This document shows, one piece after another, positions 1,418 through 9,016 of a stretch of DNA of 31,757 nucleotides. Below the pieces are notes generated by a model. That model was not told where the DNA came from. It ran no database searches and saw nothing but the letters and a program-made list of their open reading frames with translations. The position numbers were made by a program, and so were the translations under genes. Origin of the DNA: a virus; IMG/VR virus record IMGVR_UViG_3300042287_000220, positions 1 through 31,757 of that record; one strand, written 5' to 3'. Numbering within the stretch: the stretch's first letter is position 1; the number at the start of each line of letters is the position of its first letter.

Positions 1418-2146
1418 TTAATTATTCTTTTTATTAGCTAACAAGTTTAACAGATTTTTAATTTTTGTCAAGTTTTTGTATTCCAATATATTGTCAGTCA
1501 TGCTATTAACGCTGTCTAATATTCGCTTATGGTACACGGATTTTAGAGGAACAACATCCATCTTAACAAAGAACAAACTGGTTTCGGAATCTATTTTGGC
1601 AGTGGTTTGTGTTTCAGATCTAAAATATAAATCTTCCAGGCCAACGGGGTCAATTTCTTTTTTGTTGTTAGGATGATTACTTAAATCAGGATTGGTAGTT
1701 ATAGTCCAAACCCACCTGCGAAAACTCGCTTGTTCACACATTACTCTACTGATACCAGGACTGGCTTTTACCAACAGTTCACTATCTGCTACCGGTCGAT
1801 GAATATCTTCTAAAGTCATACCCAATCGTTGTGATGGGATAAAGCCGCTGGGAAAGCAAAAACAAATAGCTGTTAGTTTGCCTTGATGCATGACAGCAAC
1901 ATCTTCCTCCAGTCGTAGTGCTAGATCTTGGATTTGATTAGAGTATACACCGCAATATCTTGCAGCACGTTCTACGGTAGCTTCTGATCCTGCTATCTGA
2001 CCAAATAAATCTGTGTTATACTTTGCTAATTCTTCTTTTTTCTTTTGTATTATGTCTAGATCAGGAGAAGAAATAAAAACAGGTCCGGTATTACGAATCA
2101 TATTAGGACCTGTGGTATACGGTGTTTTTACAAAATCAATCTGCAT
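1418..2146 (-). CDS. DUF3445 protein, heme-dependent oxidative N-demethylase family
   Basis: The 242-residue product matches what I know of DUF3445 (PF11927). It has the block with FCFPSGFIPSQRLGM and then IHRPV (residues 97-119), a following Arg/Trp-rich strand (143-150), and the late block beginning LYFRSETQT (173-181) with a hydrophobic strand ending near residue 201. In the family these correspond to the P-x-x-W-x-P, IH-x-PV and R-x-ERQT-x-RLP blocks. Characterised members are alpha subunits of heme-dependent oxidative N-demethylases. This copy is shorter than usual bacterial members (roughly 300 residues), and the ERQT Arg is replaced (SETQ), so activity is uncertain. The ATG at 2146 lies 11 bases inside speD, indicating translational coupling. 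It is an unusual cargo gene for a phage. Confidence 0.7.
   Translation of the reverse strand: MQIDFVKTPYTTGPNMIRNTGPVFISSPDLDIIQKKKEELAKYNTDLFGQIAGSEATVERAARYCGVYSNQIQDLALRLEEDVAVMHQGKLTAICFCFPSGFIPSQRLGMTLEDIHRPVADSELLVKASPGISRVMCEQASFRRWVWTITTNPDLSNHPNNKKEIDPVGLEDLYFRSETQTTAKIDSETSLFFVKMDVVPLKSVYHKRILDSVNSMTDNILEYKNLTKIKNLLNLLANKKNN
1444..1471 (-). promoter_or_regulatory. possible weak promoter before the radical SAM gene
   Basis: A perfect TTGACA (1466-1471) is followed after 16 bases by TAAACT (1444-1449), a four-of-six match to a -10 box. It lies inside the end of the DUF3445 gene and would give a transcript starting near 1437, about 35 bases before the TTG start of the radical SAM gene. 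The -10 match is poor, so this is tentative. Confidence 0.3.
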
Positions 2147-2495
2147 GCCTAGTCAAAAAGTTAACCCGCATTTTCTTAGGATGAAAATATTCATTGACTA
2201 CCTGTTTTGCAACTTCAAGATCAAATTCTTTACAACTGAAAATATCAAAGTAGGCTGTGCCATCTAATTCCATAAAATGACCACTGATGTTACTAGTAGT
2301 AATTAATTGCATGAGACTATATCCCTGTTTGGGATCGCCTGGTAGAAGATATTCGATGATAGGTTCTCCGTGTGCAGTCATATCGATACGTGCCACTAAC
2401 TCTTTTACGAACTTGTATATGTTATCACGATCTTTTACGGCAGCTATGTCACAGCCGCTGCAATCTAATAATAAATGATATCCCCAGTAGCTCAT
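2136..2495 (-). CDS. speD: SpeD-like pyruvoyl-dependent decarboxylase (S-adenosylmethionine decarboxylase family)
   Basis: The 119-residue protein has the size and landmarks of short bacterial SpeD. Ser68 is in the position that becomes the pyruvoyl group, followed by His73 and Cys88. The spacings (5 and 15 residues) equal those of Ser63, His68 and Cys83 in the Thermotoga enzyme. The residue before the cleavage point is Thr67, where the classical family has Glu. I recall the same TSN form in phage homologues. SpeD makes the aminopropyl donor for spermidine, and T4-like cyanophages are known to carry it. Because some SpeD relatives are thought to use arginine or ornithine, the substrate is not settled. 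Its ATG shares one base with the stop of the dsbA-like gene (TAATG). Confidence 0.85.
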   Translation of the reverse strand: MSYWGYHLLLDCSGCDIAAVKDRDNIYKFVKELVARIDMTAHGEPIIEYLLPGDPKQGYSLMQLITTSNISGHFMELDGTAYFDIFSCKEFDLEVAKQVVNEYFHPKKMRVNFLTRHAD

Positions 2496-2781: not shown

Positions 2782-2810
2782 ATTATACAGGAATAAAAAA
2801 AGCCAGTCAA
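2782..2810 (-). promoter_or_regulatory. sigma70-type promoter overlapping a terminator
   Basis: TTGACT (2805-2810) and TATAAT (2782-2787) on the minus strand are separated by 17 bases. The -35 box lies inside the distal arm of the terminator hairpin at 2801-2823 and the spacer contains the terminator T-tract. The expected start near 2775 gives a 20-base leader with a GGAG site for the dsbA-like gene. Confidence 0.75.
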
Positions 2811-2823
2811 TGAATGACTGGCT
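2793..2823 (-). terminator. Rho-independent terminator
   Basis: A perfect 9-bp inverted repeat (2801-2809 with 2815-2823, 5-base loop) is followed on the minus strand by a run of seven T within TTTTTTTAT. It lies just after the stop of the 2845-3717 gene and ends the nine-gene unit that starts near 9000. Confidence 0.9.
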
Positions 2824-2844
2824 TAGGTTTACCAAACGGTTGAA

Positions 2845-3717
2845 TTATTTTTGAGCTTCACTGAGCACGTCGTACATTTCAAATACACCGCCGTTGCGCT
2901 CATAGATTAGACCAGCATAAAGTTCTGCTTTCATGCCTTCGCCCAGTTTGCTGGCAGCTACACGAGTAGCCCAGTTGAACAATGACTTGTCTAGAGGATC
3001 GATCTGTTGTTGTCCGCCGCTTTCTTGAACCAGTTGTACCATCTGCTTGAAACTTAGTTTTTGTTCTATTGATTCTTTCACCGGACGCTTTTTGCCTGTT
3101 GGCATCATCTTTGATTCATTCTTTTTGCCGAAGTATTTTGCTTGAGCAGCACTCATACCTTTCTTAGCGCCGTCTTTTTTATCTTCGCCTTTCTCTCCAG
3201 CAGCTTTCTTCATTGGTTCTTTCTTGTCACCATCTTTGTCGATGTCTAGAAAGTCTGGCTTAGATCCTTCAGCCATCTTTTCTTTCTTGGCCATCTTCTT
3301 TTTCTTATCTGTTTCTTCTTTCTTGGCCTCAACCATCTTCATGAATTTGCTTTTGAATTCGGGTTCTACACTTTCTTTCTTAGCTTTCTTTTTGGACTTA
3401 GGAGCATCTTCATCATCATCTTCAGGTTCTGCCTTGCTGCCACCATAGTTCTTGCCAGCATGGTGTTTGACGCCTGTAGCAGTCTTTTCTATTGTGCCAC
3501 CTGTAGAACTAGGTTTTTTATCGCCAGTTTTCATTTCTTCTTTGACATCTTCTTCTTTCTTTTTCTTGGCTTCAGCTACATAGGTGCTTTGTCCTGCTAG
3601 CACACGCAGAGCAGCATCTTCGTTGAGCTGCACAGCTTTGTCTAGTACGGGAGCAGCTACCGTGGAGATCTGATCATCCATTGAGCTGATTTTAGTGATA
3701 AGTGATTTAAAGTCCAT
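2845..3717 (-). CDS. Lys/Glu-rich protein, probable prohead core or internal head protein
   Basis: The 290-residue product is dominated by Lys, Glu and Asp between residues about 50 and 215, which suggests an extended, disordered chain. It is flanked by ordered ends: an N-terminal helix starting MDFKSLITKISS and a C-terminal helical part (about 220-290). Several sites fit (I/L/V/M)-x-E-(A/S): VAEA near residue 48, MVEA near 130, VQES near 232 and LSEA at the C-terminus. The charge pattern resembles T4 prohead scaffold or internal proteins, but I do not recognise a named family. An AAGGA ribosome-binding site precedes the ATG, and a late promoter-like octamer lies 33 bases upstream. A scaffold, a DNA-condensing internal protein, or both would fit. 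Confidence 0.6.
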   Translation of the reverse strand: MDFKSLITKISSMDDQISTVAAPVLDKAVQLNEDAALRVLAGQSTYVAEAKKKKEEDVKEEMKTGDKKPSSTGGTIEKTATGVKHHAGKNYGGSKAEPEDDDEDAPKSKKKAKKESVEPEFKSKFMKMVEAKKEETDKKKKMAKKEKMAEGSKPDFLDIDKDGDKKEPMKKAAGEKGEDKKDGAKKGMSAAQAKYFGKKNESKMMPTGKKRPVKESIEQKLSFKQMVQLVQESGGQQQIDPLDKSLFNWATRVAASKLGEGMKAELYAGLIYERNGGVFEMYDVLSEAQK

Positions 3718-3749
3718 AATCGATTCCTTGTTCCTAACAGTTGGTAATG

Positions 3750-3757
3750 TATTTATC
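3750..3757 (-). promoter_or_regulatory. T4-type late promoter, GATAAATA
   Basis: GATAAATA differs from the T4 late consensus TATAAATA by one base. It is placed 33 bases before the ATG of the Lys/Glu-rich gene and overlaps the stop codon region of the upstream gene, so it could boost the last gene of the late unit. Confidence 0.6.
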
Positions 3758-4013
3758 TTTTTACTGCAGAGCCAGCACCAAACAAACTAGTGCTTTGATC
3801 TAGGGCATTTTTGGCCGTGCCGTCCTTGTTTTTAGGCTGGTGAACCTTGGGTTGTGGGGGTGATTTAGTACCTCCAGGGCCCCCCGGCTTGCCTAAATAG
3901 CTGGTCTTTCCTCGAGCTTTTCCTGGGCTAATATGCGGATTTACCACAGTACCTATGCTAGCAGCTGAAGTAGCACCGGCAGTAGCTGATTCTATGATTT
4001 CTTGTATTTTCAT
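3753..4013 (-). CDS. small basic Gly/Pro-rich protein with capsid-targeting-like N-terminus
   Basis: The 86-residue product starts MKIQEIIESATAG, which resembles the T4 internal-protein leader MKTYQEFIAEA in length, spacing and the Glu positions. IIES is an exact match to the T4 prohead protease rule (I/L)-x-E-(A/G/S). Removal of nine residues would leave a small, basic, Gly/Pro/Lys-rich polypeptide without obvious fold (residues 25-70), ending in a short hydrophobic element and VKR. It lies between the metallopeptidase-like gene and the Lys/Glu-rich gene. No ribosome-binding site is clear, so translation may be coupled to the upstream stop four bases away. The role as a packaged internal protein is inference. 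Confidence 0.6.
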   Translation of the reverse strand: MKIQEIIESATAGATSAASIGTVVNPHISPGKARGKTSYLGKPGGPGGTKSPPQPKVHQPKNKDGTAKNALDQSTSLFGAGSAVKR

Positions 4014-4017
4014 AGTA

Positions 4018-5061
4018 TTATTTATTTTTTTTGGCTCTACCGGCTTTCATGTTAGCTAGCCAGTGTGCCATACGTGCTTTTTCACCTGATGAATTTTTAG
4101 CTGTTTTTCTTAGGCTGCTAACGCTGGCTTTGGTATTAACACCACTGCGTTTGGCAAGACCTTTGCGTCCTGGCTTCTTTCCATCTGCGAAATTTTCGTT
4201 GGCTTGCCGGCTCTGTGGCATGTGATCTTTGCCGTAACTGATACGACTGCCTGTGATAGTTTCTATAGCAACGTGCAGTGCTGTTCCGGATAGATGTTTA
4301 CGCAGCCATTTCTCCGCTAGATTGTTGATGATCTTTTCATTGGCATGCACACGGCCGCTACCTTTGGTACGATCATGTACATAAGCGTGGCATGCTTCGT
4401 GTGCTGCAATGGCAACATCTTTAGCGGCCTTACTTTCTAAATTTGGAATATTGATACTGCCACCGGGCCCCGAATCTTCAGTGTCTGTAAACATAGGAGA
4501 AGCACTGCTCTGATATACATAGTACATACCTGGCTCGATTTCTTCTTCATCGTCCGTTACACGATTTTTGCCTAATATACTTTGGATAGTCTCGTATGCA
4601 GTCCACAGTGTAGGAGCAGGTGCACCACCCACTCTTGTAGTTGGCAACATGGGTTTATCTTCGGAATCAAAATCGCCATAACGCTGACGCAACTCGTCGT
4701 CACTGGCTTCAGCTTCTTTAACATCGTCGAACTCTTGCCCCTGAAGTTTTACCCCTACTATATCCTGTACCAGTTTCCATGCCAATCCCTTCTTACCTCG
4801 TTCTAGCAGTTGTTTGAACAGAGTTTTTTGTTCTTCATCAGCCATGCTGAAGAACTTGGCCAACTCCATCATGCCTATGTTACCGGGATAAGATGCTTCG
4901 TGCTTAATGCTTTCTCCGCCACCACCGTCACCACCTGATGACCCACCGTCTCCGCTGTAGCCGGTATAGTAGCCATAGCCCCCATAGGGACCTGGACCGT
5001 ATGCAGCCCAACGTGGTCTGCGCTTACGTTTTCTTTCAACAACAAATTCATGAGATTTCAT
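4018..5061 (-). CDS. putative HEXXH zinc metallopeptidase with capsid-targeting-like N-terminus
   Basis: The 347-residue protein begins MKSHEFVVERKRKRR, a short Glu-containing leader followed by a very basic patch. A Gly/Tyr-rich linker follows (about 20-50), then a helical acidic region (60-130). At 221-225 is HEACH, a match to the HEXXH zinc site, preceded by a hydrophobic helix as in true metallopeptidases. Glu242, 17 residues on in a predicted helix, is a plausible third ligand. The C-terminus (about 290-347) is strongly basic. There is no signal peptide. Its ATG overlaps the stop of the 23-residue gene (ATGA), and no ribosome-binding site is visible, so it depends on coupling. Peptidase activity is inferred from the motif alone; packaging is inferred from the leader and operon. 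Confidence 0.6.
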   Translation of the reverse strand: MKSHEFVVERKRKRRPRWAAYGPGPYGGYGYYTGYSGDGGSSGGDGGGGESIKHEASYPGNIGMMELAKFFSMADEEQKTLFKQLLERGKKGLAWKLVQDIVGVKLQGQEFDDVKEAEASDDELRQRYGDFDSEDKPMLPTTRVGGAPAPTLWTAYETIQSILGKNRVTDDEEEIEPGMYYVYQSSASPMFTDTEDSGPGGSINIPNLESKAAKDVAIAAHEACHAYVHDRTKGSGRVHANEKIINNLAEKWLRKHLSGTALHVAIETITGSRISYGKDHMPQSRQANENFADGKKPGRKGLAKRSGVNTKASVSSLRKTAKNSSGEKARMAHWLANMKAGRAKKNK

Positions 5062-5129
5062 ACAGGTGAATAAGGATTGCGTGGACGATCTGTACCGTCA
5101 TCTTCTGGGTATACTGGATAGGGGTTCAT
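5058..5129 (-). CDS. 23-residue Pro/Tyr-rich peptide gene linking two genes
   Basis: An ATG at 5127-5129 opens a 23-codon frame (MNPYPVYPEDDGTDRPRNPY, then SPV) ending in TGA at 5058. Its start overlaps the stop of the preceding gene (ATGA) and its stop overlaps the start of the metallopeptidase-like gene (ATGA). AGGAG lies 10-11 bases before its ATG, whereas the next gene has no such site. The peptide has six prolines and three tyrosines. It may be a real small protein or mainly a translational relay; either way the double overlap suggests that it is translated. Confidence 0.55.
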   Translation of the reverse strand: MNPYPVYPEDDGTDRPRNPYSPV

Positions 5130-5332
5130 ACAGGACGTTCTCCTGTGAGATACGGTAAACTGAACCATAATTGGAACCATTCTGGGGTACCTGGCTTTAT
5201 GTTGTGTTTTTTCATAAGCTCACCTTTTTCATTGCCAGTAATTGAGATATTGCTCCCTTCGTAAGGTTGATAACCTTTGAATTCTGTAATACCAGCTAAC
5301 TTTTTGAGTTCGTTAATCTGCAGATCCGGCAT
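5126..5332 (-). CDS. small conserved phage protein of unknown function
   Basis: The 68-residue product starts MPDLQINELKKLAGITEFKG and ends with an aromatic segment (EWFQLWFSLPYLTGE, residues 51-65). I recall the same LWFSLPYLTG element in hypothetical proteins of aquatic T4-like phages, without a function. The N-terminal NELKKLAGI helix resembles leaders seen at the start of other proteins in this unit. The ATG lies 20 bases inside the preceding gene and its stop overlaps the 23-residue gene, so it is tightly coupled. The location argues for a virion or assembly role. Confidence 0.6.
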   Translation of the reverse strand: MPDLQINELKKLAGITEFKGYQPYEGSNISITGNEKGELMKKHNIKPGTPEWFQLWFSLPYLTGERPV

Positions 5333-6362
5333 AATATTTTCCGTCTTTTCCTAGAGTTACGGTAACTGCGCTTAACCCTCTAACACCAACTAGTGTTGCT
5401 GGTACTTTAATTTCTTTTCCGCCCTTTGGAGCTGCCTCAGTTCTTCCAGCAAATTTATAAGTTTCGCCTTCGTATTCTATAGTATATGCTGCTGGCCACT
5501 GTGCTCCTGAGGTATATCTACTGCTTAAAGGAACTGCATCTTGTTTTGGTATATCGGATTGAGACACCTGAGTTGCGATTGGTTTACCAGTTAACCGGTT
5601 AATACTAGGATCTCCATCACCCGACACTCTAGCCGCAGCATTCCCTGCGCCTAAAGCCATAGCGCCTGCTAAACCTGCTGCCGCTAATTTTTCTTTCCAA
5701 CCCTCATCTATACTTTCAGTGGCTTTCTCACCAGTTTTATAAACTTCCCACTTCTTACCAGTCTGTTCTGATTTTCTGCGAGCCATGTCTTTGAGTCTAT
5801 AGTATTCGCGTTCTTCTTCCGGACTGTCGGCATAGGCACCATATGGTCCAGGAAACACTTTCCATTTCTTACCATTGATATAGATAGCGAAATTATTACC
5901 AGGCTCTGTGTTGCCTTCATCCCAATCTTCTGGATCGCGAATTCTTTCTGTAGTTTTTCTCATACTTGGTGATACAGCAATAATAGAATCAGGATCGACT
6001 CTAGGTTCAACCGTTAAAAACTTCCAACCCGGATCAACTACGATTTCAATATCGCCTCCGCTGTTAGGGAACGGTTTATTATTTGCGTTCTTAATTTTAA
6101 CCGCATCTTCGTCAAAGTCAACAGCAGTGACTATAGAAGGAAACTTTTCTCCTCTGCCCGTAGTATAGACTACTCGTTGGCCTACACGGAAATCATTGCC
6201 GGTTGCCTCCGCCACACCTTGATCATAGGGCTTCTTATGCTTAACATCGCCCTGTTTCTCAGCTCGCTTCTTGTCTTTGTGGACCCCAGCACCAGCAGTC
6301 TTAGAATTCTTAGCCACAAAGTTACGTGGTTTTGATGCGGGTATAAAATCTTTTGCTCTCAT
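5313..6362 (-). CDS. modular late protein with capsid-targeting-like N-terminus and protease-site linkers
   Basis: The 349-residue protein begins MRAKDFIPASKPRNFVAKN. It continues with a very basic Lys-rich stretch (about 15-48), then a linker containing VAEA (about 51-54). A beta-rich part with RVGQRVVYTTGRGEKF (about 59-74) looks like a small SH3- or KOW-like barrel. A charged domain carries KKWKVFPGPYGAYAD (about 165-179). Next comes IDEG and an Ala/Gly-rich hydrophobic helix (about 218-247), then a C-terminal beta-rich domain with TIEYEGETYKFAGRTEAAPKG. IDEG is an exact (I/L)-x-E-G site and VAEA a near one, so maturation cleavage between modules is plausible. No enzyme motif was found. 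It overlaps its upstream neighbour by ATGA. Function is unknown; an internal head or ejected protein is my inference. Confidence 0.6.
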   Translation of the reverse strand: MRAKDFIPASKPRNFVAKNSKTAGAGVHKDKKRAEKQGDVKHKKPYDQGVAEATGNDFRVGQRVVYTTGRGEKFPSIVTAVDFDEDAVKIKNANNKPFPNSGGDIEIVVDPGWKFLTVEPRVDPDSIIAVSPSMRKTTERIRDPEDWDEGNTEPGNNFAIYINGKKWKVFPGPYGAYADSPEEEREYYRLKDMARRKSEQTGKKWEVYKTGEKATESIDEGWKEKLAAAGLAGAMALGAGNAAARVSGDGDPSINRLTGKPIATQVSQSDIPKQDAVPLSSRYTSGAQWPAAYTIEYEGETYKFAGRTEAAPKGGKEIKVPATLVGVRGLSAVTVTLGKDGKYYAGSAD

Positions 6363-7405
6363 ACAGTGATTCCTCTAGACCGAGTTCCGCCTTTGCGTTT
6401 GATTCTACTGAGTTCATCTAAAGCATGGCGAATCTGTTCCATGTTCATTTTTAATTCTTCAAACTGACGAGCCATTATTTGCCACTCGCTAGGACTAGCG
6501 CCATCAGCACGACTAGCAAGATCCTTTAATTGGCCAGCAGCACGTAGCATGCGATATTTTAATTTTGCAGGATTGGCTTTGTCATGGCTGTGAATCATGG
6601 GATCCATGGGATCTGCGGGATCCATCTCAATAGGAGCTTCTTTAATTGTGCCTTCATTTTTTTTGTACAGTGGAGATATAGACCTTACAACGTCTTTTTT
6701 CATTTGATATGATTTGAAGAATTCTTTTTCTTTTTGACTCAACGGTCTATCGGTTTTAATTTTAGTCAGAATAAATTTAAAATAAGCATCGTCATCTGCC
6801 AATTCGTTGATTGTGCTTTCGTTGATGCCCATACCGTTACGTACCGCTGAAAACAAAGGTTTAGCAAGTTCTCCTGCACCTGTAGCTTCTTTGAATCCTT
6901 CAAAGTCGTTGTTGGCAGCAGCAGCTCTAGCACCGCTGGCACTGACACCCGCTACACCTTCAGCTCCATCTTCACGTTCCCCACTGCTGACGAAATCCAG
7001 CACTTCGAAATCGTAGAATCCGTGTGCCTTGCCTTCAACACCGTTGTACTGTGTGAGAAGACTTTTCATATCTTCTAATCTATCACTGCCTGCCACAAAG
7101 GTAGCACTGTTATATCCCTGCTCATGTAGGTATGAAGCCACCTTGCCTATGGTGTTAATGCCAGCATTATCGACCACATCACCGGCGTATTCAGGAAACA
7201 TTTCTTTGATAAATTTGATTTTAGTGGCATAGTCTAGAGGATTTTTCTTTTTATCCTGAGTCTGGCTGACAAATATCCTCATGTCGCCACCTTGCTGCTT
7301 CATGGTGTCCAGTACCTGTTTGTGTCCAATGGTAGGAGGATTCATCCTGCCGAAACAGAACGTCACATGTTTTGCACCAGCTTCAAATAATTCTAACAGC
7401 AGCAT
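6359..7405 (-). CDS. nucleotidyltransferase-like protein (NMNAT/cytidylyltransferase fold) with capsid-targeting-like leader
   Basis: The first ten residues, MLLLELFEAG, resemble the start of T4 Alt and contain LFEA, an exact prohead protease-type site. Immediately after it comes a nucleotidyltransferase signature, GRMNPPTIGH (19-28), in which T-x-G-H corresponds to the HxGH nucleotide-binding motif. An N-P-L-x-Y-A-x-K motif lies around 55-62. VAGSDR (about 104-109) and VSASGARAA (about 152-160, in place of ISxTxxR) are further family blocks. The remaining half (170-348) is helical, contains IKEA near 254, and ends in a basic tail. The family normally adenylates or cytidylates small phosphorylated substrates such as NMN; the substrate here is unknown. 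The gene is coupled by TAATG and ATGA overlaps in the late unit, not in a metabolic operon. Confidence 0.75.
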   Translation of the reverse strand: MLLLELFEAGAKHVTFCFGRMNPPTIGHKQVLDTMKQQGGDMRIFVSQTQDKKKNPLDYATKIKFIKEMFPEYAGDVVDNAGINTIGKVASYLHEQGYNSATFVAGSDRLEDMKSLLTQYNGVEGKAHGFYDFEVLDFVSSGEREDGAEGVAGVSASGARAAAANNDFEGFKEATGAGELAKPLFSAVRNGMGINESTINELADDDAYFKFILTKIKTDRPLSQKEKEFFKSYQMKKDVVRSISPLYKKNEGTIKEAPIEMDPADPMDPMIHSHDKANPAKLKYRMLRAAGQLKDLASRADGASPSEWQIMARQFEELKMNMEQIRHALDELSRIKRKGGTRSRGITV

Positions 7406-7740
7406 TAGTCGTAGTCGCCTTTTTCAAGATATTTTTCCTGCTCATCAGCAATGCGTTTTGCTAGGTCTATGAGTTTTTCTTTGGGAAACTTTTTTTCTCT
7501 ATCATCGATGTCGTATTTTTCGCAGTAATGATCCAAACAGGTTTCGATAGGTCGTATATAAACTTTGAATACTCGTGGATTACCTTGATGTTCTTTGTGT
7601 CTTTTCACAGCAGGAAAGAAATATTGGTTCAACATAGCATCGTCGTTGTCTATGAAGAACTTGAGATCGTCTAACCAATCAATTTCTTGTTGATCATCTT
7701 TAGGTGCACCAATAGCACTCCACATTTCTCTTAACAGCAT
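7405..7740 (-). CDS. conserved phage protein of unknown function
   Basis: The 111-residue protein is acidic and helical, with W8, W23 and a central YIRPIETCLDHYCEKYDID segment. I recognise it only as a hypothetical protein common in aquatic T4-like phages. It has no signal peptide or membrane segment, and both ends are joined to neighbours by TAATG, so its level is tied to the proteins on either side. A chaperone, scaffold or virion role would fit the position but nothing in the sequence proves it. Confidence 0.65.
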   Translation of the reverse strand: MLLREMWSAIGAPKDDQQEIDWLDDLKFFIDNDDAMLNQYFFPAVKRHKEHQGNPRVFKVYIRPIETCLDHYCEKYDIDDREKKFPKEKLIDLAKRIADEQEKYLEKGDYD

Positions 7741-8984
7741 TACCAGCTCCTACATGACCAATAACGTGCTTTCCAACGTGGACCTGGATTTTTGCAGTTA
7801 TGACGAGCACGGAAACTTTTTCTACGTGCTGGATTACTTTTCTTAATACGCATTTTCTTATCGCCGAAGTTTACCTTGACAATATTGCCGTTAGGCTTGC
7901 GTACATATACTTTGGATTTCTTAACATCGCCAGCCATTTTCTTGCCCAGCGGAACTTCACGTCCTTGATACTTGGCTTCATCTACATCACCTTCTTCCAC
8001 GCCTTGCGATCTATAAACTCCGTCTACATTCTGTTTTGGTGTGCCACCGGTGGCCTGTACAACAGCAGTTAATAAATCGTTGAATTTTAATTTAGGATTA
8101 ATTAACGCATTAGGAACAATAGTTTGGTCGCCATGTACTAGATCAACATCATCAAAGTAAAGTGGAGCATTTTTTTCTAATCCCGCTTCTTTACGTAGCC
8201 AGTTTGTGAGTTTCTTTTGGTCGCCATTTTTTTCGTACCATTTAGCAACATTATAACCGTGTGCCGAACCTTCCGTCACGCCTTCTTCGTACTTCTGTGC
8301 TTTCATGTAATCACGGGCTGTGTCGATGTAGTCTACGGCTTTGGTGATCTTGCTCTGTACCCATTCTGGAAGATTGTCATCTGCTTGTAGAATGCTGTAC
8401 AATTCTTCAGCGGCACTGTCTATAGTACGTAGATCATCCTTGGCCATGTCGCCTTCACGATCATACTCTCCGTAGTTTACAGGATCTTTGGGATCTTCAG
8501 GACCGTGGTCCTCCATTTTAACGCAGTTGTCTACGGTCTTGCCGCCTTTCTGTTTGGTGCCCATGCGCTTGTAACCTTTCCAACAGGCTTTGCCATCGAC
8601 ACCTTTTTGTTTGTCTTCTACTAATTCGCCCTCTAAAAACTCTAAACCCTCATTGGTCAGCATATCTATGGCAGTGTCATCCAATTCGATTACAATACCA
8701 TCTTCTAGAATGTCTACAATTTCTGTGGCGATTTCGTGATCTTCAGAAAAACTAATGCCAAATGCATCACCTATCTGAAATGATTCTGAAAATCCTTTGG
8801 CTTTGGCTTCTTTTTCGAGATCAGCCTTGCGTTGTATAATTGCTTGGGAAATTTCTGGATCTTTGTTGGCTGTGGGATCTGATTCTAGATCGTCTAGTGC
8901 CTGTCTTTTGGCTTTGAGATCGTCCTGATCTTTAAGAGCTGTTTCGTTGACGATAGCGTCTAGTTTGGATATAAGGTCTCTCAT
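7740..8984 (-). CDS. large modular late protein with protease-site linkers and conserved basic Cys/Trp C-terminus
   Basis: The 414-residue product starts with a helix (MRDLISKLDAIVNETALKD) and a coiled-coil-like stretch to about residue 66. An acidic domain (70-125) follows, then a short basic module with KACWKGYKRMGTKQKGGK (about 131-148) and a helical part (160-230). After the linker VTEG a folded module begins NVAKWYEKNGDQKKLTNWL. A second linker contains VEEG and VDEA, and leads into the C-terminal basic module ending RHNCKNPGPRWKARYWSCRSW. I recall this last module and the KACWKGYKRMG module as separately recurring elements in aquatic T4-like phages. The linkers look like prohead protease sites. 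It is the first gene after the late promoter at 9009-9016. Exact role unknown. Confidence 0.65.
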   Translation of the reverse strand: MRDLISKLDAIVNETALKDQDDLKAKRQALDDLESDPTANKDPEISQAIIQRKADLEKEAKAKGFSESFQIGDAFGISFSEDHEIATEIVDILEDGIVIELDDTAIDMLTNEGLEFLEGELVEDKQKGVDGKACWKGYKRMGTKQKGGKTVDNCVKMEDHGPEDPKDPVNYGEYDREGDMAKDDLRTIDSAAEELYSILQADDNLPEWVQSKITKAVDYIDTARDYMKAQKYEEGVTEGSAHGYNVAKWYEKNGDQKKLTNWLRKEAGLEKNAPLYFDDVDLVHGDQTIVPNALINPKLKFNDLLTAVVQATGGTPKQNVDGVYRSQGVEEGDVDEAKYQGREVPLGKKMAGDVKKSKVYVRKPNGNIVKVNFGDKKMRIKKSNPARRKSFRARHNCKNPGPRWKARYWSCRSW

Positions 8985-9008: not shown

Positions 9009-9016
9009 TATTTATC
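9009..9016 (-). promoter_or_regulatory. T4-type late promoter, GATAAATA, heading the nine-gene late unit
   Basis: GATAAATATAG on the minus strand matches the late consensus at seven of eight bases and lies in a 44-base intergenic gap, 24 bases before the ATG at 8984. The next strong terminator in that direction is at 2793-2823, defining one late transcription unit. Confidence 0.7.

What the first reader, a model, noticed from the sequence alone, without database searches (positions are those of the whole stretch)
2845..8984. Late operon of candidate capsid-packaged proteins with targeting-like leaders and prohead-protease-type sites
Several adjacent late genes start with short peptides resembling the T4 capsid-targeting leader MKTYQEFIAEA or the start of T4 Alt: MKIQEIIESA (4013), MKSHEFVVER (5061), MRAKDFIPAS (6362) and MLLLELFEAG (7405). 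Sites of the T4 protease type (I/L)-x-E-(A/G/S), or with V at the first position, recur: IIES, LFEA, IKEA, IDEG, LSEA, VAEA (twice), VTEG, VEEG and VDEA. Many of these sit at module boundaries. The set is bounded by a late promoter (9009-9016) and a strong terminator (2793-2823). T4 packages such proteins and ejects them with DNA. That this operon is an arsenal of ejected effectors is my inference.
Basis: partly seen in the sequence, partly recalled or inferred. Interest (0 to 1): 0.88.

Follow-up and report, generated by a model that had tools for sequence, protein, structure and literature searches.

The report
Protease-cut protein cargo inside phage heads
A T4-like virus of bacteria appears to make chains of small proteins joined by cutting sites for its own head-building protease, so that a mixed cargo, parts of which seem to carry hidden export signals, is cut apart inside the virus head and could be delivered with the DNA.

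Summary
The motifs are real and more than chance. The operon (2845-8984, minus strand) belongs to a T4-like phage whose 280-kb twin contig carries the S77 prohead protease and gp23. Its 290-aa protein has the largest excess of protease-type sites of 388 predicted proteins. In 149 related loci, modules move between the operon's proteins with a site at the junction: for ten hand-picked modules P1 is Glu in 113 of 116 distinct upstream contexts and P3 is hydrophobic in 86%. Three boundary sets chosen without regard to the motif are enriched 2.4-2.9 fold. One module released here by VDE|AKYQG is a free gene starting M-A(K/T)Y(Q/K)G in 4 of 7 short-genome phages. The 86-aa protein repeats the maturation site of its own capsid protein (E|SATAGATSA). 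In cultured cyanophages an NMNAT homologue and its neighbours are labelled virion proteins after mass spectrometry and have T4-type leaders. New here: many junctions would expose Sec- or Tat-like signal peptides, and 19 of 19 GH19-bearing relatives have such an element. The operon most likely encodes head-packaged polyprotein precursors. Cleavage, ejection and export remain unshown.

The parts
7740..8984 (-). 414-aa polyprotein-like precursor; leader-like start MRDLISKLDAIVNE|T, then modules separated by FSE|S (8783), FLE|G (8630), VTE|G (8270), VEE|G (7991), VDE|A (7976)
   Evidence: P1 Glu conserved 1.0, 0.92, 0.85, (VTE|G: column covered by only 12 of 63 homologues), 0.43, 1.0
7743..7976 (-). 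C-terminal basic module AKYQGREVPLGK..ARYWSC (pI 11.3), predicted to be released by VDE|A; stand-alone gene starting M-A(K/T)Y(Q/K)G in four short-genome phages
7991..8270 (-). inserted module GSAHGYNVAKW... flanked by VTE|G and VEE|G; absent from many homologues (e.g. L014, L016)
7405..7740 (-). 111-aa protein with no sites; probably not cargo
6359..7405 (-). 348-aa cytidylyltransferase/NMNAT-like protein; leader MLLLELFE|A (cut after 7382), then INE|S (6817) and IKE|APIEMDP (6637); homologues are virion proteins in cultured cyanophages
5313..6362 (-). 349-aa protein: MRAKDFIPAS start (no Glu site) on a DUF7230-like region (22.5 bits, below the cut-off of 27), then VAE|A (6206) and IDE|G (5702)
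5631..5702 (-). hidden Sec-like signal peptide GWKEKLAAAGLAGAMALGAGNAAA directly after SIDE| (own heuristic)
5126..5332 (-). 68-aa protein without strict sites or leader
4018..5061 (-). 347-aa protein: leader MKSHEFVVE|R, basic/Gly-Tyr frame, VKE|A (4713), payload with HEACH, C-terminal module starting ANE|NFADGK
4387..4401 (-). HEACH, zinc-metallopeptidase-type motif of the payload (function inferred; Pfam blank, fold model poor)
3753..4013 (-). 86-aa precursor MKIQEIIE|SATAGATSA...; mature part pI 10.6
3963..3992 (-). ESATAGATSA, identical to the predicted maturation site of the phage's own major capsid protein (LSE|SATAGATSAGNVATLNRV)
2845..3717 (-). 290-aa Lys/Glu-rich precursor with seven conserved sites; largest site excess of all predicted proteins in two related genomes; holds the KPDFLDIDKDGDKKEPMKKAA module
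9009..9016 (-). GATAAATA, T4-late-type promoter 24 nt before the 414-aa gene; same place in both related genomes
3750..3757 (-). second GATAAATA, 32 nt before the 290-aa gene (26 nt in G002)
2800..2824 (-). intrinsic terminator, 10-pair stem and T-run

Best explanation
The operon encodes precursors of proteins packaged inside the head of a T4-like phage. Leaders of the T4 capsid-targeting type bring at least three precursors (348, 347 and 86 aa) into the prohead core. The phage's S77 prohead protease then cuts after Glu in (I/L/V/M/F)-x-E|(A/G/S/N/T). Unlike T4 internal proteins, several precursors are polyprotein-like: a string of interchangeable small modules with a site at the joints, so one gene yields several mature internal proteins. 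The released parts include an NMNAT/cytidylyltransferase, a HExxH payload, small basic modules, a peptide that copies the capsid protein's own mature N-terminus, and modules whose new N-terminus is an export-type signal. They are probably ejected with the DNA. Shown by sequence: sites, their conservation, their excess at joints, exchange of modules, protease gene. Shown by others' mass spectrometry in relatives: an NMNAT-like protein and its gene neighbours in virions. Inferred: cleavage here, ejection, activity in the host.
For: S77 protease and gp23 in the twin contig. Site excess: 290-aa protein 5 vs 0.83 (rank 1 of 388) and its relative 6 vs 0.99 (rank 1 of 375); the putative scaffold gp22 (named from its place between protease and gp23) is rank 2 in both. 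Motif Glu conserved 0.89 vs 0.62 for other Glu, Mann-Whitney P 1.4e-5 (sequences related, so P is optimistic). Junction logo for ten hand-picked modules: P1 Glu 113 of 116, P3 ILVMF 86% vs 21% background, other upstream positions (P2, P4-P10) at most 0.61 bits. Boundaries taken without regard to the motif: 85 of 263 with a site vs 29.4 expected; 92 of 194 vs 38.0; 93 of 165 vs 36.5; cross-family alignment starts 95 of 310 vs 31.6. Frame of the 347-aa protein: (I/V/L)xE directly or one residue before it in 9 of 9 contexts, five with a leader and four fused behind other payloads. Start Met of free genes replaces P1 Glu exactly in 4 of 7 short-genome phages examined. Capsid-protein site shared with the 86-aa protein; a site of that kind in 8 of 8 gp23 proteins found. 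Virion proteomes: S-SCSM1 gp89-gp93 labelled 'virion protein' (paper passages); S-CREM2 ORF154, 155, 156, 160. One module, GKKDACYHK...WPSAYASG, follows ISE| in S-CREM2 ORF160 and LEE| in the 349-aa homologue of G002. Leaders of virion-detected proteins MKSFLQFLKE|A and MKNFSSFLTE|A match the T4 targeting and processing positions 4, 7, 8, 10 (PMC9026906 passages).
Against: No cleavage is shown experimentally for any cargo protein here. S-CREM2 authors warn that such proteins may co-purify with virions; ORF157-159 between the detected ones were not detected; ORF154 rests on 3 peptides. For S-CREM1 (14 virion proteins) the passages seen name no NMNAT among them (PMC9964418). The 290-, 347- and 86-aa proteins have no tblastn relative among 50,697 named phage records, so virion evidence reaches them at best through a single 28-residue module. 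The flanking genes of the cyanophage clusters differ from those of the window. 178 of 263, 102 of 194 and 72 of 165 motif-blind boundaries have no site near, and the 263 include shifted starts of the same joint. One much-shuffled module (RVRDPEDWDEG) is mostly not preceded by a site. The 349-aa leader has no site. The strict motif is not enriched in N-termini genome-wide. The ten modules of the logo were picked by eye.
Confidence: 0.76

Rival explanations
1. Core/scaffold helpers: the proteins are prohead-core components like T4 gp67/gp68 and gp22, chopped into peptides to clear space for DNA; the short sites serve removal, not delivery.
For: The putative scaffold has a similar site excess; the 290-aa protein is Lys/Glu-rich and its last three fragments are 28, 27 and 3 aa; the 86-aa protein copies the capsid protein's N-arm; T4 core proteins are cut into many pieces (PMC9026906 passages).
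Against: Payloads are recognisable enzyme domains that vary between phages in a fixed frame: at E 0.01 or better, GH19 in 11, HAD acid phosphatase 5, LysM 4, M23 1, HD 1 of 55 members scanned, some of the HAD hits below Pfam's cut-off. NMNAT-like proteins are reported in virions of several cyanophages. May still be true for the 290-aa protein alone.
Confidence: 0.14
2. Ordinary fusion proteins with Glu-rich linkers: modules recombine at flexible linkers that happen to read xxEG/xxEA, with no cleavage, and are expressed late in the host cytoplasm.
For: Many boundaries lack a site. E-G and E-A are common in linkers (general knowledge). Genome-wide, hydrophobic P3 before E-(A/G/S) is only slightly more frequent than before other E (0.276 vs 0.244), and homologues of a Clp-like ATPase, not thought to be cut, show the bias too (0.364 vs 0.216).
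Against: P3 hydrophobicity 86% vs 21% and P1 Glu 113/116 with otherwise variable upstream residues; identity with the capsid maturation site; 26 of 26 signal-like segments follow a Glu and none starts at a Met, which makes little sense without cutting; virion detection of homologues.
Confidence: 0.07
3. The hydrophobic GWK/RR segments are not export signals but membrane anchors or pieces of an ejection channel, as for ejected proteins of podoviruses.
For: Several GWKDW segments lack a clean A-x-A end and have no net positive charge; they are Gly/Ala-rich and weakly hydrophobic, which (recalled, no call) is also the look of signal-arrest-release domains of endolysins. At least one hydrophobic segment of the set has no Glu site before it (L043).
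Against: 30 distinct segments satisfy an n-region, hydrophobic core and A-x-A-like end (all three demanded by the heuristic) and three match Tat profiles. The same downstream payload (xSGEDxLPD) follows a Sec-like segment in L004 and L015 and a Tat-like one in L017 and L043.
Confidence: 0.4

Closest known systems
T4 internal proteins (IPI-III, Alt), capsid targeting sequence and gp21 prohead protease (PMC9026906, passages)
   Same: Short N-terminal leader ending in (L/I)-x-E|; S77 protease; late-type promoters; small basic mature parts; packaged with the DNA.
   Different: T4 internal proteins are cut at one or both ends; here up to seven conserved sites separate exchangeable modules, some of which start with a hidden export-type signal. 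The 86-aa protein also copies the capsid protein's mature N-terminus.
Polyvalent proteins of phages and conjugative elements (Iyer et al. 2017, PMC5512222, passages)
   Same: Strings of unrelated domains thought to be delivered with DNA, likened by those authors to polyproteins; metallopeptidase and lysozyme domains occur.
   Different: There, release is ascribed to peptidase domains inside the protein; here, sites for the separate prohead protease lie at joints. The words signal peptide and cyanophage do not occur in its main text (0 hits each).
Ejection (E) proteins and inner-body proteins of giant phages SPN3US and phiKZ (PMC10052503, PMC9026906, passages)
   Same: gp21-related protease cuts many head proteins after Glu; large internal protein mass.
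   Different: Motif AXE in SPN3US; apart from the protease itself, the identified cuts produce N-terminal propeptides, not modules of one chain.
Virion NMNAT/cytidylyltransferase of T4-like cyanophages (PMC9602691, PMC10665884, passages)
   Same: Homologue of the 348-aa protein (38% identity over about 190 aa), detected in purified virions.
   Different: Leaders, protease sites or fused modules are not discussed in the passages read; the cyanophage NMNATs seen here carry a leader but not the window's APIEMDP module.

Membership tests
T4-type capsid-targeted internal proteins | gp21-type (S77) protease in the same genome | tested here: met
   PF03420 hit, E 1.3e-25, in the twin contig G001; 8 of 15 related contigs have one, the same 8 that have gp23
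T4-type capsid-targeted internal proteins | N-terminal leader ending in hydrophobic-x-E| within about 10-14 residues | tested here: met
   Met for 4 of the 6 site-bearing proteins: 348-, 86- and (T at P1') 414-aa proteins with P1 Glu conserved 0.95-1.0, and the 347-aa protein (9 of 9 contexts); not met for the 349- and 290-aa proteins
T4-type capsid-targeted internal proteins | T4 spacing of targeting and processing residues (positions 4, 7, 8, 10) | tested here: inconclusive
   Met in cultured relatives MKSFLQFLKEA, MKNFSSFLTEA, MKSFFQFLSEA, MQGFKTFLSEA; window leaders of the 347-, 348- and 86-aa proteins have the Glu at 9, 8 and 8
T4-type capsid-targeted internal proteins | Presence in purified virions | tested here: inconclusive
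   Only through others' data on homologues or shared modules: S-SCSM1 gp89-93, S-CREM2 ORF154-156 and 160; not for this phage
T4-type capsid-targeted internal proteins | Cleavage at the site in the prohead | not testable with these tools
   needs semi-tryptic N-termini or an in vitro cut
T4-type capsid-targeted internal proteins | Ejection into the host with DNA | not testable with these tools
   inference from T4
Polyvalent proteins | Several unrelated domains in one chain, exchanged between chains | tested here: met
   modules shared across operon proteins; payload list
Polyvalent proteins | Embedded peptidase as releasing agent | tested here: inconclusive
   HEACH motif in the 347-aa protein and weak, below-cut-off DUF6782/M78/M91 matches in some relatives; Pfam reports no peptidase in most of the 55 chains scanned
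Sec/Tat substrates | Recognisable signal peptide at the predicted mature N-terminus | tested here: inconclusive
   Relatives: 32 of 1099 sites by own heuristic; PF10518 over cut-off in 1 and TIGR01409 over cut-off in 2 of 3 Tat-like cases. Window: one Sec-like segment (5702-5631) by the heuristic only
Sec/Tat substrates | Export shown | not testable with these tools
   no assay

The most novel reading that the evidence does not exclude
The prohead protease acts as a switch for protein targeting: inside the head it frees hidden Sec and Tat signal peptides, so that packaged proteins, among them LysM/GH19 cell-wall enzymes, are first ejected into the host cytoplasm and then exported by the host to its own periplasm within moments of infection. 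The same phages anchor or sort part of the cargo with a peptide that copies the mature N-terminus of their own capsid protein.
Probability: 0.38. Interest if true: 0.93.

Novelty: new variant of a known kind. Interest (0 to 1): 0.8.

Why it matters
Virion-borne proteins can decide the first minutes of infection, but in environmental T4-like phages they are mostly annotated as hypothetical. A junction rule (hydrophobic-x-E|) would let one read mature cargo straight from sequence, find payloads hidden inside 'hypothetical' genes (LysM/GH19, HAD, HD, NMNAT, metallopeptidase-like) and predict their destination. If the exposed signals work, it is a use of host secretion by ejected phage proteins that I did not find in print (searches; open-licence PMC only). 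The leaders and junctions would also be natural templates for protein delivery by T4-like heads.

Tried and rejected
Raw motif counting: weak on its own; genome-wide N-terminal enrichment absent, and homologues of a small regulator next to the operon (2495-2755) have the highest motif density of the families compared. Clp-like ATPase homologues also show the P3 bias (0.364 vs 0.216), so that conditional ratio was dropped as an argument.

Fold of the HEACH payload: four-sequence alignment, pLDDT 48.6, pTM 0.40; too poor, no fold search run. Named-phage relatives of the 290-, 347- and 86-aa proteins: none by tblastn. Module RVRDPEDWDEG was left out of the pooled logo because its pattern overlapped itself and it is mostly not preceded by a site; counted as evidence against. 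The pattern search gave 30 segments; four were dropped before counting 26 (one antisense ORF, two GISASGAR segments inside the NMNAT domain, one GIDAW segment inside an extra domain of the 290-aa family). A motif-blind search for internal hydrophobic segments gave 14, of which the script found a site within 20 aa upstream for 8; by eye one more has VQE|G directly (the script's slice ended at the Glu), four have a non-canonical Glu site (TDE|G, AAE|G, AKE|D, VDE|V) and one has none. Promoter octamer inside the window alone: not significant. PF03420 and PF07068 searches rang in none of the 14 control genomes, so missing hits in 7 of 15 contigs do not show absence; those contigs may be fragments. 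The short-genome phages were not searched for a prohead protease.

Gene calls in G001/G002 come from a simple script of mine, not a gene finder; the 388 and 375 ORFs include doubtful ones. Search loci: 80 of 312 and 80 of 84 matches were kept by the tool, 149 loci in all, several pairs from one contig; identical and near-identical proteins were collapsed before counting. Payload scan: 55 sequences chosen by me for diversity; the non-redundant cargo set holds 365.

Full report
What the window is. The window is a 31.8-kb fragment of a T4-like phage (PhoH, clamp loader, gp31-type co-chaperonin, Clp-like ATPase, endolysin, holin and tail genes). A 280,019-bp contig (G001) carries copies identical at the protein level of the 414-aa and 348-aa operon products and the same gene order around them. 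Of 15 related contigs searched, 8 have both genes; the others may be fragments.

Observation. The strict motif occurs 15 times in 1834 aa where the genome density predicts 5.4. Ranked by excess over shuffled sequence, the 290-aa protein is first of 388 in G001 (5 vs 0.83) and its homologue first of 375 in G002 (6 vs 0.99). The putative scaffold gp22, named from its place between the protease and gp23 genes and a known class of substrate in T4, is second in both (8 vs 2.35 and 8 vs 2.09). On the other side, N-terminal motifs are not enriched genome-wide, and two operon proteins (111 and 68 aa) have no strict site.

In alignments of 28-66 non-redundant homologues per family, motif Glu residues with enough coverage are kept in 0.89 of sequences on average against 0.62 for other Glu of the same proteins (18 vs 96 residues). 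All seven sites of the 290-aa protein are kept at 0.92-1.0. In two controls outside the cargo the order is reversed (Clp-like 0.73 vs 0.79; the 226-aa protein, one motif Glu, 0.08 vs 0.42). Exceptions: VEE|G of the 414-aa protein 0.43, FKE|A inside the NMNAT domain 0.72 (probably not a real site), VAE|A of the 349-aa protein 0.65; no motif Glu of the 347-aa protein had enough coverage to be counted.

Sites are module joints. Homologous loci (149) show the operon's proteins to be mosaics. A module such as GWKSKxAGAALA..., GYGRYWCSTDKKWK or NFADGK... turns up behind different upstream sequences, in different proteins or positions. For ten modules, the upstream contexts that are mutually unlike number 116; P1 is Glu in 113, P3 is I/L/V/M/F in 86% (background 21%), both hold in 99, P1' is A, G, N, S or T in 114, and no other upstream position exceeds 0.61 bits (first pass). 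I picked these modules after seeing some junctions, so three sets chosen without regard to the motif were tested: alignments that begin at one protein's start and inside another (85 of 263 with a site within 6 aa, 29.4 expected), starts of large insertions (92 of 194 within 12 aa, 38.0 expected) and resumption points (93 of 165, 36.5 expected). Cross-family alignment starts gave 95 of 310 against 31.6. Many boundaries thus lack a site, partly because alignment edges are fuzzy, and the sets contain shifted starts of the same joint; the enrichment is 2.4 to 3 fold, not absolute. In the window itself the GSAHGYNVAKW module of the 414-aa protein is an insertion lying between VTE|G and VEE|G.

Three independent signs that Glu| is a true N-terminus. 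First, the last module of the 414-aa protein, here after VDE|AKYQGREVPLGK, is a separate gene in phages with genomes of 32-54 kb and starts M-AKYQGR (Kolga), M-AKYKGR (HTVC202P, HTVC111P), M-ATYKGK (CRP-902): the start Met stands exactly at P1. Three of the seven examined (CRP-2, CRP-6, HTVC106P) do not align so cleanly. In C48C1, HTVC008M and Melnitz (Kyanoviridae) and in the Flavobacterium phage immuto, with unlike upstream sequence, it follows LTE|A, LEE|A, MME|S and LDE|G. Second, the frame of the 347-aa protein begins with a leader (MKSHEFVVE|R, MRASEFVTE|R) in some phages and is fused behind another payload in others (REGIVSE|K, NIDE|A, KDVDE|S); (I/V/L)xE is directly or one residue before it in 9 of 9 distinct contexts. 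Third, the 86-aa protein MKIQEIIE|SATAGATSA shares ten residues across the bond with the phage's own capsid protein KYLSE|SATAGATSAGNVATLNR; 8 of 8 gp23 proteins have such a site, one of them reading SASTGATSAGN. In L080, L143, L144 and L145 the same module is fused behind other proteins after IKE| or FDE|; in L128 a diverged copy follows IKE|A.

Capsid-protein mimicry recurs. S-SCSM1 gp97 and S-CREM2 ORF160, both virion proteins, carry 24-residue stretches like the mature N-arm of their capsid proteins (scores 83 and 95 against their own, shuffled maxima 44 and 49), while the window's tag matches only its own lineage (55 against own, shuffled maximum 40; 22 and 21 against the cyanophage capsid proteins). 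gp97 scores slightly higher against S-CREM2's capsid protein (88) than against its own (83). A common docking site on the shell is my inference.

Virion evidence from cultured relatives. In S-SCSM1 five genes in a row, gp89, gp90, gp91 (NMNAT), gp92 and gp93, are labelled virion protein; the paper reports a mass-spectrometric virion proteome that includes the NMNAT (PMC9602691, passages). In S-CREM2 ORF154 (cytidylyltransferase, 3 peptides), 155 (5), 156 (6) and 160 (7) were detected, ORF157-159 not (PMC10665884 table seen in passages); its authors caution that co-purification is possible. That paper's introduction also lists NMNAT-like proteins in S-CBWM1 and S-SZBM1 virions. Against this, the passages seen of the S-CREM1 paper (14 virion proteins) name no NMNAT among them (PMC9964418). 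The genes flanking these clusters differ from those flanking the window's operon. The window's 348-aa protein matches both NMNATs at 38% over about 190 residues. Shared short modules link the 290-aa protein to gp92 (21 of 28 identical) and the 414-aa protein to ORF160 (15 of 28). A further module of ORF160, GKKDACYHK...WPSAYASG, follows ISE| there and LEE| in the 349-aa homologue of G002. Leaders of virion-detected proteins are MKSFLQFLKE|A, MKNFSSFLTE|A and MDSKTFNSLSE|A, the first two with aromatic or hydrophobic residues at the T4 positions 4, 7 and 8 and Glu at 10, the positions shown to matter (PMC9026906 passages).

Payloads. The slot between frame and tail of the 347-aa protein varies: HEACH in the window (4 related copies counting its own), HAD-like in L013 (below cut-off), HD in L068, GH19 with or without LysM in many. 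Over 55 diverse cargo proteins Pfam finds, at E 0.01 or better, GH19 in 11, HAD acid phosphatase 5, LysM 4, NT5C 2, M23 1, HD 1 and others.

Hidden export signals (new). A heuristic finds signal-peptide-like segments after 32 of 1099 internal sites (30 distinct), and at 290 of 69,809 positions overall, many of the latter being neighbours of the same segments. Examples are IEE|GWKSKAAGAALAAANLLGSPAQA/AEEP and VEE|DISRRSFLRGAGALATGAALGATGANA/QTSGED; the window's own is IDE|GWKEKLAAAGLAGAMALGAGNAAA/RVSGD (5702-5631). Three Tat-type cases were tested: PF10518 gives 24.5 bits in L043 (over its cut-off of 22.7), 20.4 and 17 in L023 and L017; TIGR01409 gives 20.7 and 19.3 in L023 and L017 (over its cut-off of 16.7) and 15.5 in L043, all at the internal position. 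In a separate pattern search 26 of 26 such segments (30 matches, four dropped) follow a Glu directly or with one or two residues between, and none begins at a start codon. All 19 distinct ORFs with the GH19 signature have the GWK/GWR element right after Glu, although several lack a clean A-x-A end and may be anchors. A motif-blind search for internal hydrophobic segments found 14, 8 with a canonical site upstream by script (see Tried and rejected). A signal that can only work after cutting is hard to explain unless cutting happens; that the host then exports the payload is inference.

Mechanism. Shown by sequence: protease gene, conserved sites, site-bounded mosaic design, late-type promoter octamers 24 nt and 32 nt before the 414-aa and 290-aa genes and at 24 and 26 nt in a second genome, terminator. 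Shown by others in relatives: an NMNAT-like protein and gene neighbours in virions. Inferred: prohead cleavage of these precursors, ejection, export, and any effect on the host.

Novelty. The parts are known in kind: T4 targeting sequences and gp21; polyvalent proteins, which their authors likened to polyproteins but thought to be released by built-in peptidases (PMC5512222 passages); multiple cuts in giant-phage propeptides (PMC10052503 passages). Modular chains punctuated by prohead-protease sites that expose export signals were not found in the searches, which cover open-licence PMC papers only and whose listings were read, not all the papers.

Noticed in passing
G001:C1:32339-32890 (minus) and G002:C1:217301-217858 (minus): Fe/Mn superoxide dismutase (PF02777 E 9e-25 for the G001 protein) with a capsid-targeting-like extension ending in a site (MTYSFIRNVLNE|G, MAYNFIQKFIVE|G): a candidate packaged SOD.
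   Followed up: partly
G001:C1:189187-191695: Two proteins near the head genes starting MRINEILTE|S and MRIENLLE|N, with long Ala/Pro-rich or hydrophobic stretches and several sites: further cargo candidates outside the operon; G002 has a relative of the first.
   Followed up: partly
G001:C1:43052-49558: Second cluster with leader-like starts (MNKLFE|GG, MKLKHIIHE|A, MRFWELLLEDEA); distribution not studied.
   Followed up: no
window 3750-3757: A second GATAAATA overlaps the end of the 86-aa gene and precedes the 290-aa gene; G002 has one 26 nt before its 290-aa homologue, so the operon may have two late start points.
   Followed up: yes
window 2136-2495 and 300-1403: S-adenosylmethionine decarboxylase-like and radical-SAM-like genes just downstream of the terminator; the decarboxylase was found in only 6 of 149 loci, some of which may end before it.
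   Followed up: no
L145:1192-2937, L144:130-1926: 347-aa-family proteins with HELVH metallopeptidase-like motifs and, in L145, a 5'-nucleotidase-like domain, fused around the same frame.
   Followed up: partly
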